Shown piece by piece: positions 4,069 through 30,923 of a stretch of DNA of 33,470 nt; the stretch's first letter is position 1, and each line of letters begins with the position of its first letter. The stretch comes from a virus: the IMG/VR virus record IMGVR_UViG_3300038566_000067, positions 1 through 33,470 of that record, one strand, 5' to 3'. The notes below the pieces were generated by a model. The model was not told the DNA's origin. It did no database searches and saw only the letters and a list, made by a program, of their open reading frames with translations. The position numbers and the translations under genes were made by a program.

Positions 4069-4097
4069 AAAAAAAGCCGCTTACAAATATAAGCGGC
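4069..4097 (-). terminator. Strong Rho-independent terminator of the candidate ncRNA
   Basis: Minus strand: perfect 8-bp stem GCCGCTTA (4097-4090) / TAAGCGGC (4083-4076) with a 6-base loop, followed by seven T (4075-4069). It defines the 3' end of the transcription unit starting near 4417. Confidence 0.9.
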
Positions 4098-4417
4098 GAA
4101 TCTAATTTGATTGGTACGGAATGCACCGGTTGTGAGCTATCGGACTTGAACCGATATAAAGTAATTAAACCCGCTTTGACAGTTAAGCTAAGCTCACACC
4201 GCTGTACTCTAGTTAGCCTCGCTCTATCTCTCGACCGTGCTTAGCAATGCTATATATCGTCATAGCTACGAGATAATTTATTACCACCTATTGAGTTGGT
4301 TTATCTAGGCACGGTACGATACCCGCCAACTTATTTCGCATCCGCATGGATAGTCAATCCTCACCGTACTTTTTGCCATTCCTGTGTCTTTACGCGCCAA
4401 CTTCTGCACTGCACAAC
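4069..4417 (-). ncRNA. Candidate structured non-coding RNA with tRNA-like elbow domain
   Basis: About 345 nt bounded by its own promoter and a strong terminator, with no convincing gene inside. Near its 3' part is a tRNA-like fold: a 7-bp acceptor-like helix GTGAGCT (4197-4191) / AGCTCAC (4138-4132); a D-arm-like 4-bp stem GCTT/AAGC (4188-4185, 4176-4173) with an 8-nt loop; and a T-arm with 5-bp stem ATCGG/CCGAT and the classic loop TTCAAGT (4150-4144). Only 17 nt (4172-4156) replace anticodon arm plus variable loop, and they do not pair as an anticodon stem. The acceptor helix continues past one bulged A into CGGT/ACCG (4201-4198, 4130-4127), so the elbow is embedded, not a free tRNA end. 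Upstream, ACCGTGCCTAG (4315-4305) can pair with CTAAGCACGGT (4244-4234), one mismatch; TATCTC (4275-4270) with GAGATA (4230-4225) would cross it as a pseudoknot. Two near-copies of AAGTTGGCG also occur. Function unknown. Confidence 0.7.
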
Positions 4418-4420
4418 TTA

Positions 4421-4463
4421 ATAATACACTAACCGTTAAATATTGCTAATAACGTTTAGTTAT
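4421..4463 (-). promoter_or_regulatory. Promoter with ATAAC-N5-GTTAT operator (ncRNA)
   Basis: Minus strand: perfect ATAAC-TAAAC-GTTAT at 4463-4449, then -35 TTAGCA (4449-4444), a 17-base spacer and -10 TATTAT (4426-4421). Predicted start near 4414-4417. The element overlaps the stop codon of the preceding 41-residue gene, so that operon may read through into the RNA as well. Confidence 0.75.
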
Positions 4464-30446: not shown

Positions 30447-30566
30447 ATGACACCAGTGGAAATGTTTTTAACAGTTTTATATGTCGGAACATGCTTAGGC
30501 TTGTACGGCGTGATTAGTTTTATATCTTGGTTTGAAGATGAATATATAAATGGAGAAAGACTATGA
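30447..30566 (+). CDS. Moron small membrane protein, 39 aa
   Basis: Starts MTPVEMFLTVLYVGTCLGLY with one membrane span (about residues 6-25) and an acidic end (SWFEDEYINGERL). GGAG lies about 9 bases before the ATG. Its stop overlaps the ATG of the next gene (ATGA). A tiny membrane protein in a moron could act in superinfection exclusion, but this is inference. Confidence 0.62.
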   Translation: MTPVEMFLTVLYVGTCLGLYGVISFISWFEDEYINGERL

Positions 30567-30763
30567 ATAATTTAAGCGATATGACAGATTTAAGCTTCAC
30601 ACAAACCAAGCGAGCAATGACTAGCACGCACTTATCACGAGTTAGCCATCAATACCGCCCTGCGTGGGAAATTGCTGCTACAAATAACGCTAAACCTAAA
30701 GTTGTTATCGACCGTGCGCGTGATGGTAAGCGTAGTAATCCGACTGTATTTATGGGGTGTTGA
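30563..30763 (+). CDS. Moron hypothetical protein, 66 aa
   Basis: Starts MNNLSDMTDLSFTQTKRAMT; basic, with a possible helix-turn-helix-like pattern around THLSRVSHQYRPAWEIAATN but too short to be sure. Middle gene of the three-gene moron; ends VFMGC one base before the next ATG. GGAGAAAG lies before its start. Function unknown. Confidence 0.6.
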   Translation: MNNLSDMTDLSFTQTKRAMTSTHLSRVSHQYRPAWEIAATNNAKPKVVIDRARDGKRSNPTVFMGC

Positions 30764-30764
30764 T

Positions 30765-30923
30765 ATGGTACTAACTTTCATGTGCTATAGGTGTAGAGGG
30801 CGTTATGATAGGTCGGCATTTACACCTGATGCTATAAAGTGTTATCACGCAAGATGGTGTATTAAATGCGAGTCAACACCAGTCGGTACAATTCCAAAAA
30901 TAAAACAAAGCCCCGCTAATTAA
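30765..30923 (+). CDS. Moron zinc-finger-like protein, 52 aa
   Basis: ATG at 30765 is taken; the frame is open far upstream but overlapped by the previous gene. Starts MVLTFMCYRCRGRYDRSAFT; first CxxC is CYRC, then a second set (C29, and CIKC) about 20 residues later, a plausible zinc ribbon. Basic, so nucleic-acid binding is likely. Last gene before a strong terminator. Confidence 0.6.
   Translation: MVLTFMCYRCRGRYDRSAFTPDAIKCYHARWCIKCESTPVGTIPKIKQSPAN

What the first reader, a model, noticed from the sequence alone, without database searches (positions are those of the whole stretch)
4069..4463. Stand-alone structured RNA with a tRNA-like elbow but no anticodon arm
Seen: promoter, about 345 nt without a convincing gene, perfect terminator. 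Near the 3' end are a 7-bp acceptor-like helix, a D-arm-like hairpin and a canonical T-arm (loop TTCAAGT), but only 17 unpaired nt replace anticodon arm and variable loop. The acceptor helix continues past one bulged A into CGGT/ACCG, so the elbow is built into a larger fold. Two further long-range helices are possible, one pseudoknotted. Known: phages carry large structured RNAs (GOLLD and ROOL are examples, often near tRNA genes) and tRNA mimics; this one is shorter and I do not recognise it. Inferred: a regulatory, decoy or packaging RNA.
Basis: partly seen in the sequence, partly recalled or inferred. Interest (0 to 1): 0.85.

Follow-up and report, generated by a model that had tools for sequence, protein, structure and literature searches.

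The report
Phage structured RNA holding truncated tRNA
A group of viruses of the marine bacterium Pseudoalteromonas carries a previously uncatalogued non-coding RNA with a conserved pseudoknot and a conserved stem that holds whole or remodelled tRNAs; in this virus the stem holds a lysine tRNA that has lost its anticodon arm, which shows how a tRNA can be built into another RNA.

Summary
A roughly 350-nt minus-strand locus lies between a sigma-70-like promoter and an intrinsic terminator. Near its 3' end is a tRNA-like element (acceptor, D-arm, T-arm) inside a longer helix. Rfam's tRNA model scores it 46.1 bits, but default filters and ARAGORN miss it.

Comparison of 24 distinct related loci, all from Pseudoalteromonas phages or similar viral contigs, shows two things.

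(1) The 'elbow' is not original to this RNA. Contig L024 has an intact tRNA-Lys(UUU) at the same place; the window copy differs by a 5-nt deletion in the anticodon arm plus three substitutions.

(2) The conserved thing is the host RNA. It has a 5' hairpin, a pseudoknot supported by covariation, a slot that often holds real tRNA genes (Met, Asn, Gly, Pro), and a long helix with both-sided changes in 14 of 17 pairs. The helix's tip is exchangeable: intact tRNA, remodelled tRNA, or unrelated folds.

In 18 of 20 loci a strong match to the 16S anti-Shine-Dalgarno tail, without a start codon, precedes the pseudoknot. It is weak in the window.

I read it as a new, probably ribosome-directed, phage RNA family that works like GOLLD/ROOL tRNA-island RNAs but matches no Rfam family. 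The function is inferred; no expression data were available.

The parts
4444..4449 (-). promoter -35 hexamer TTAGCA
   Evidence: 17-nt spacer kept in most relatives, including those with a different promoter sequence (TTGACN-17-TATTGT)
4421..4426 (-). promoter -10 hexamer TATTAT; RNA start expected a few nt downstream, about 4414-4417
   Evidence: -10 ends 4-5 nt before element A in ten loci of both phage groups
4383..4416 (-). element A: conserved 5' hairpin (TGTG/CACA enclosing GTGC/GCGC or GCAC)
   Evidence: alignment; loci
4293..4382 (-). variable linker module (swapped or absent in relatives)
4280..4292 (-). position of the orphan anti-Shine-Dalgarno complement (AATAGGTGGTAAT here, degraded; AAGG(N)GGTGAT in relatives), no start codon downstream
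   Evidence: window -9.1 kcal/mol, median of 20 loci -13.75
4216..4276 (-). element B: pseudoknot domain. P1 4275-4272/4228-4225; P2 4270-4268/4260-4258; pseudoknot helix 4266-4262/4253-4249; P4 4247-4243/4223-4219; conserved loop ACGGTCGAGAGATAG
   Evidence: (P2 3/3, pseudoknot 5/5, P4 3/5 pairs with both-sided changes), coordinates
4210..4215 (-). slot between B and C; empty here, filled by tRNA genes (Met, Asn, Gly, Pro) in relatives
4198..4209 (-). 5' strand of helix C (GAGTACA-G-CGGT)
4131..4197 (-). tip of helix C in this phage: tRNA-Lys-derived element without a normal anticodon arm; acceptor 4197-4191/4138-4132, D-arm 4188-4173, linker 4172-4156, T-arm 4155-4139, bulged A 4131
   Evidence: RF00005 46.1 bits; intact homologue L024 13139-13210, 60.8 bits, tRNA-Lys(ttt)
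4119..4130 (-). 3' strand of helix C (ACCG-G-TGCATTC)
4113..4127 (-). alternative hairpin GGTGC-ATTCC-GTACC that competes with the base of helix C
   Evidence: sequence; both sides change in relatives (GATAC/GTATC, GATGC/GCATC)
4069..4097 (-). intrinsic terminator

Best explanation
Shown: the locus is one member of a family of phage loci, each a cassette with its own predicted promoter and terminator, that encode an RNA with a fixed scaffold: hairpin A, pseudoknot B and long helix C. Between B and C, and at the tip of C, it carries exchangeable inserts: intact tRNA genes, tRNAs with a deleted, shortened or enlarged anticodon arm, or unrelated folds. In this phage the tip of C is a tRNA-Lys(UUU) that lost 5 nt of its anticodon arm while keeping acceptor, D- and T-arms. 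Inferred: the RNA is made as a discrete transcript and the scaffold is the functional part. In most loci a sequence just 5' of pseudoknot B pairs strongly with the 3' tail of 16S rRNA without a start codon, so the RNA most likely docks on the 30S subunit, either carrying tRNAs to it or occupying its anti-Shine-Dalgarno site during infection. In this phage both the docking sequence and the tRNA are eroded, so this copy is probably a reduced version that keeps only the scaffold. I give about 0.85 to the scaffold being a functional structured RNA, 0.9 to the tRNA-Lys origin of the elbow, and about 0.35 to the ribosome-docking step; the figure below is for the whole.
For: Helix C: 23 elements, 95.4% of cells paired, 14 of 17 pairs with both-sided changes, against 8.3 in shuffles and 3-9 in slid registers. 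Pseudoknot B: 95.7% paired; loop/partner pairs GCTAT/ATAGC, GCTAG/CTAGC, CCATT/AATGG and CGATT/AATCG at the same spacing. Origin of the tip: L024 has an intact tRNA-Lys there, 60.8 bits; the alignment shows one 5-nt gap and three substitutions. tRNA genes in the slot. Promoter geometry kept. The cassette is shared by phages whose flanks do not match the window by blastn, so it moves as a unit. Anti-Shine-Dalgarno match: 18 of 20 loci at or below -12.7 kcal/mol, against 0.6% of background 24-mers reaching -12.5 and a median of -6.2 upstream of this phage's own ORFs; the best match in the locus in nearly all, about 15-20 nt 5' of B.
Against: No expression or binding data. The 16S match is weak in the window (-9.1) and in PS_L5 (-6.9), so docking is least supported in the phage at hand. 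The loci are related by descent, so 18 of 20 are not 18 independent events. The family is narrow (one host genus as far as named). One relative (L013) has lost B and most of C, so the RNA is dispensable there. The sequences in alignments A2 and A3 were cut by hand to the helix strands (one T dropped in HS5), which favours the structure, although sliding the register destroys the signal. Single-sequence folding of B does not find the pseudoknot.
Confidence: 0.45

Rival explanations
1. Phage tRNA operon with structured processing elements. A, B and C help to express, stabilise or process the tRNAs in the transcript; loci without tRNAs, such as this one, are operons whose tRNAs have been lost, and the tRNA-like element is simply a tRNA pseudogene.
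For: Several relatives have ARAGORN tRNAs between B and C or at the tip of C. The window element derives from a tRNA by deletion. Decayed tRNA-like pieces sit beside intact tRNAs in L015, L021, L024 and C7.
Against: About two thirds of the loci have no recognisable tRNA, yet promoter, A, B, C and terminator persist with compensatory changes, so the scaffold is kept for something other than tRNA expression. The tip of C lacks an encoded CCA; its 3' side pairs with the leader instead.
Confidence: 0.27
2. RNA decoy or counter-defence RNA: the exchangeable tip, including tRNA elbows without an anticodon, baits host nucleases or tRNA-binding defence proteins, and its diversity reflects an arms race.
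For: Constant scaffold with very diverse tips. Several tRNA-like tips or slot modules have a missing, miniature or enlarged anticodon arm: window, C7, the L033 and L024 slot modules, and possibly L015.
Against: Many tips show no tRNA likeness at all (PS_L5 type, HS5, H40/1, L018, L020). No defence system is known to be targeted. The L015 element is not recognised by the tRNA model even at E 5.
Confidence: 0.12
3. DNA-level recombination cassette (like an integron attC site or a hairpin insertion site): the inverted repeats are recognised as folded DNA and explain module exchange; the RNA is incidental.
For: Modules are exchanged between phages with different flanks, and helix C with a bulge and a variable tip recalls attC geometry (from memory).
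Against: G-U and U-G pairs are common at several positions of helix C (UG in 11 of 23 at one pair), as expected of RNA. Promoter and terminator flank the structure at fixed distances. C lacks the attC core sequences (sequence inspection, consensus recalled from memory).
Confidence: 0.06
4. Packaging or terminase-linked RNA or DNA site.
For: In the window's phage group it lies a few genes from the terminase small subunit.
Against: In the H40/1, H103, XCL1123 and C7 group it lies directly upstream of the (major) tail protein gene instead.
Confidence: 0.03

Closest known systems
GOLLD and ROOL RNAs (phage and prophage ornate RNAs near tRNA islands)
   Same: Phage-encoded, non-coding, conserved structured scaffold with pseudoknots and a less conserved region that can hold tRNAs; linked to tRNA genes; GOLLD binds ribosomes in pull-downs and tRNAs can lie in its linker (PMC12286853).
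   Different: About 350 nt against more than 800 nt for many GOLLD members. No match to either Rfam model at E up to 5 in the window's locus. The tRNA sits at the tip of a conserved helix or between two conserved domains.
Canonical tRNA (RF00005), tRNA-Lys(UUU)
   Same: The element 4197-4131 scores 46.1 bits and is homologous to an intact tRNA-Lys in L024.
   Different: Anticodon arm lost, no encoded CCA, acceptor stem runs on into helix C.
tmRNA
   Same: A tRNA-like domain without a normal anticodon arm combined with pseudoknots in one RNA (from memory).
   Different: No tmRNA call by ARAGORN or Rfam, no tag reading frame, and the tRNA-like part is closed at its acceptor end by helix C instead of ending free.
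Bacterial Y RNA YrlA
   Same: A non-coding RNA with a built-in tRNA-like module (from memory; papers listed were not read).
   Different: No YrlA match in the window's locus. A sub-threshold hit in L015 (22.8 bits, threshold 69) covers only a T-arm next to a real tRNA-Asn.

Membership tests
tRNA (RF00005) | covariance-model score above the gathering score of 29 bits | tested here: met
   46.1 bits with relaxed filters; missed with default filters
tRNA (RF00005) | 5-bp anticodon stem with 7-nt loop and an anticodon | tested here: not met
   5-nt deletion against L024; only a weak 4-bp hairpin can form; no ARAGORN call
tRNA (RF00005) | free CCA 3' end after maturation | not testable with these tools
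   no CCA encoded (A-ACCG follows the acceptor stem); addition after cleavage cannot be excluded
GOLLD / ROOL | match to the Rfam model | tested here: not met
   no hit at gathering or E up to 5
GOLLD / ROOL | phage RNA adjacent to or containing tRNA genes | tested here: met
   tRNA genes between B and C or in C in several relatives; not in the window itself
GOLLD / ROOL | homo-oligomeric nanocage | not testable with these tools
   needs cryo-EM or native gel
tmRNA | tRNA-like domain plus tag reading frame, ARAGORN or Rfam match | tested here: not met
YrlA | match to RF02553 | tested here: not met
   no hit in window
structured non-coding RNA | compensatory changes in homologues | tested here: met
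structured non-coding RNA | discrete transcript | not testable with these tools
   promoter and terminator predicted only

The most novel reading that the evidence does not exclude
A new class of ribosome-directed phage RNA: it docks on the 30S subunit through the anti-Shine-Dalgarno tail with an adjacent pseudoknot and presents a tRNA or tRNA elbow from a fixed helix, thereby loading phage tRNAs onto, or blocking, host ribosomes. tRNAs captured in it lose the anticodon arm and become structural parts.
Probability: 0.25. Interest if true: 0.85.

Novelty: new variant of a known kind. Interest (0 to 1): 0.63.

Why it matters
Phage tRNA islands often carry large structured RNAs (GOLLD, ROOL) whose function is unknown. 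This family is small, sits in cultivable phages with cultivable hosts (Pseudoalteromonas phages SL25, PHS21, H40/1 and others), and has natural variants with and without tRNAs and with a strong or weak match to the ribosome's anti-Shine-Dalgarno tail. That makes the question of what such RNAs do to ribosomes directly testable. It also offers an example, caught between two related phages, of a tRNA turning into a structural domain of another RNA.

Tried and rejected
Protein-coding origin: L024 and C7 read ...KYGREIE... across part of B, and L014 and L017 read MARKDT in A, but frames, starts and stops are not kept between loci.

Bacterial homologues: a strict pattern scan of 84,980 genomes found none; a looser one gave 8 hits that are all unrelated sequence by inspection. 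The loose viral pattern scans brought in L025-L032 and L044-L052, which are chance hits.

Plasmids: no match for the PS_L5-type tip.

A second RNA cassette at 30447-30768 of the window, suspected from a blastn match to L021 and L012, turned out to be small plus-strand genes.

Other relatives against Rfam: only tRNAs reach threshold.

The genome search 'relatives' is not available for a virus record.

Full report
What is in the window. The window is a 33.5-kb virus record of a phage close to Pseudoalteromonas phages PS_L5, AL, PHS3, PHS21 and SL25. The flagged stretch lies on the minus strand between two small gene blocks, a few genes from a terminase small subunit gene (phrog_1482, 1562-1011). 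It has a promoter-like pair with a 17-nt spacer, no convincing gene, and a perfect intrinsic terminator. ARAGORN finds no tRNA and Rfam at default filters finds nothing. With relaxed filters the tRNA model matches 4197-4131 over its full length at 46.1 bits. The element and its helix fold clearly better than shuffled sequence (z about -3).

Relatives. DNA comparison found homologous intergenic loci in 15 Pseudoalteromonas phage records; pattern scans of IMG/VR and further comparisons added others. After removal of chance hits and duplicate records there are 24 distinct loci, the window included. They fall into two genomic settings: upstream of terminase genes in phages that also share other DNA with the window, and directly upstream of the (major) tail protein gene in phages whose fetched flanks share little or nothing with the window outside the RNA locus. 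The cassette therefore moves between phages as a unit. Pattern scans of bacterial genomes found no copy (the eight hits are unrelated).

Anatomy of the family. The order is: promoter; element A (a hairpin that starts 4-5 nt after the -10 box); a variable linker; a purine-rich sequence; pseudoknot B; a slot; helix C; terminator. In C7, H103, XCL1123 and some IMG/VR contigs element A is replaced by other sequence. Helix C is the best supported part: in 23 elements 95.4% of cells pair, 14 of 17 pairs change on both sides, and sliding the register by one base drops pairing to about 30%. A single A next to ACC is bulged in nearly all. G-U pairs are common, which points to RNA. B has a short hairpin whose loop pairs with a downstream segment; four different loop/partner pairs occur at the same spacing, and a further stem below a very conserved loop (ACGGTCGNGAGATAG) also covaries. 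Any one of these loop pairings alone could be chance (3-19% of shuffles); it is their repetition with different bases at the same place that carries the case. The three-segment arrangement at the 3' end, in which TGCATTC can pair either with GAGTACA upstream or with GTACC downstream, covaries both ways and might be a switch; this was not tested further.

The tRNA connection. Between B and C, real tRNA genes occur in Pq0 (Met, Gly), L014 (Pro), L015 (Asn), L018 (Met, Asn), L021 (Asn) and C7 (Asn). At the tip of C, contig L024 carries an intact tRNA-Lys(UUU): 60.8 bits, 5-bp anticodon stem, loop CUUUUAA. The window's tip is the same tRNA with three substitutions and a 5-nt deletion in the anticodon arm; the one change in the acceptor stem turns U-G into C-G. 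With only these two copies it cannot be said whether the remaining elbow is under selection. C7 has at the same place a tRNA-like fold with perfect acceptor, D- and T-arms but a 10-bp hairpin inserted in the anticodon arm. H103 and L024 have in the slot a tRNA-like element with encoded CCA, compensating acceptor stems and an anticodon arm of only 4 bp and 3 nt. L015 may have a second tip without an anticodon arm, but the tRNA model does not recognise it. Other tips are not tRNA-like; one type, shared by PS_L5, AL, PHS3, PHS21, SL25, L017 and H103, is itself well conserved, and its last stem differs between PS_L5 (ACCG/CGGT) and H103 (GCCA/TGGC) with pairing kept. So the tRNA elbow is one of several inserts, and repeated loss or remodelling of the anticodon arm is a trend, not a rule.

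The ribosome lead. Upstream of B, 20 loci were tested against the 16S 3' tail. In 18 the duplex is -12.7 kcal/mol or stronger, which is rare in the window (0.6% of 24-mers reach -12.5), far stronger than the median upstream of this phage's own ORFs (-6.2), in nearly all the best match in the locus, and about 15-20 nt before B. The sequence itself varies (AGGAGGTGAT, AAGGCGGTGAT, AAGGTTTGGTGAT, GTGAGGTGAT) while complementarity stays. No start codon at a usual distance is shared. The simplest reading is a docking site for the 30S subunit rather than a ribosome-binding site of a gene. In the window and PS_L5 it is weak. The canonical 16S tail was assumed for the host (established knowledge).

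Interpretation. Shown: a conserved structured RNA family with an exchangeable tRNA position, and the origin of the window's elbow from tRNA-Lys. Inferred: that the RNA is made as a discrete transcript, that it binds ribosomes, and that it carries or mimics tRNA for that purpose. The nearest known RNAs in behaviour are GOLLD and ROOL, which are also phage RNAs near tRNA islands; GOLLD binds ribosomes and can hold tRNAs in its linker (PMC12286853). It is not a member of either by the Rfam models. Literature searches in the held library found no description of this family or of phage tRNAs without an anticodon arm, but subscription journals are not covered.

Verdict. The single element in the window is a truncated tRNA inside a conserved RNA; the family is new to Rfam and worth a bench test.

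Noticed in passing
L035 (phage C7) 1040-1175, minus strand: tRNA-like fold with perfect acceptor, D- and T-arms and a long variable arm, whose anticodon arm holds a 10-bp hairpin insert of about 40 nt; could be a tRNA intron or a remodelled tRNA.
   Followed up: partly
L021 2364-2520 and L035 1297-1375 (minus strands), slot modules: Related modules whose central 6-bp stem is fully compensated (CCCATT/AATGGG against TTCAAT/ATTGAA) and whose loops each contain a six-base palindrome (TGATCA, TGGCCA), as in dimerising kissing loops.
   Followed up: no
L001 3255-3375, L017 1150-1270, L033 2620-2745: A highly conserved, non-tRNA tip module (AAAGGTGCGTCACGAG...GGCGCTGRA) with a covarying last stem and a possible AGCGC/GCGCT pseudoknot; no significant Rfam match.
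   Followed up: partly
window 4113-4130 and 4203-4209; same place in relatives: Two mutually exclusive pairings of TGCATTC (with GAGTACA upstream or GTACC downstream), both preserved by changes in relatives: a possible switch next to the terminator.
   Followed up: no
L013 461-614: Deletion derivative in which element A is joined directly to the 3' part of C and the terminator; shows the middle of the RNA is dispensable in that phage.
   Followed up: no
L008, L016, L018, L024 downstream of C: A second, tandem helix-C element with its own variable tip and another terminator.
   Followed up: partly
window 30447-30768, plus strand: Small plus-strand genes inside the minus-strand structural cluster, next to the head-tail adaptor gene; conserved in many Pseudoalteromonas phages.
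   Followed up: yes
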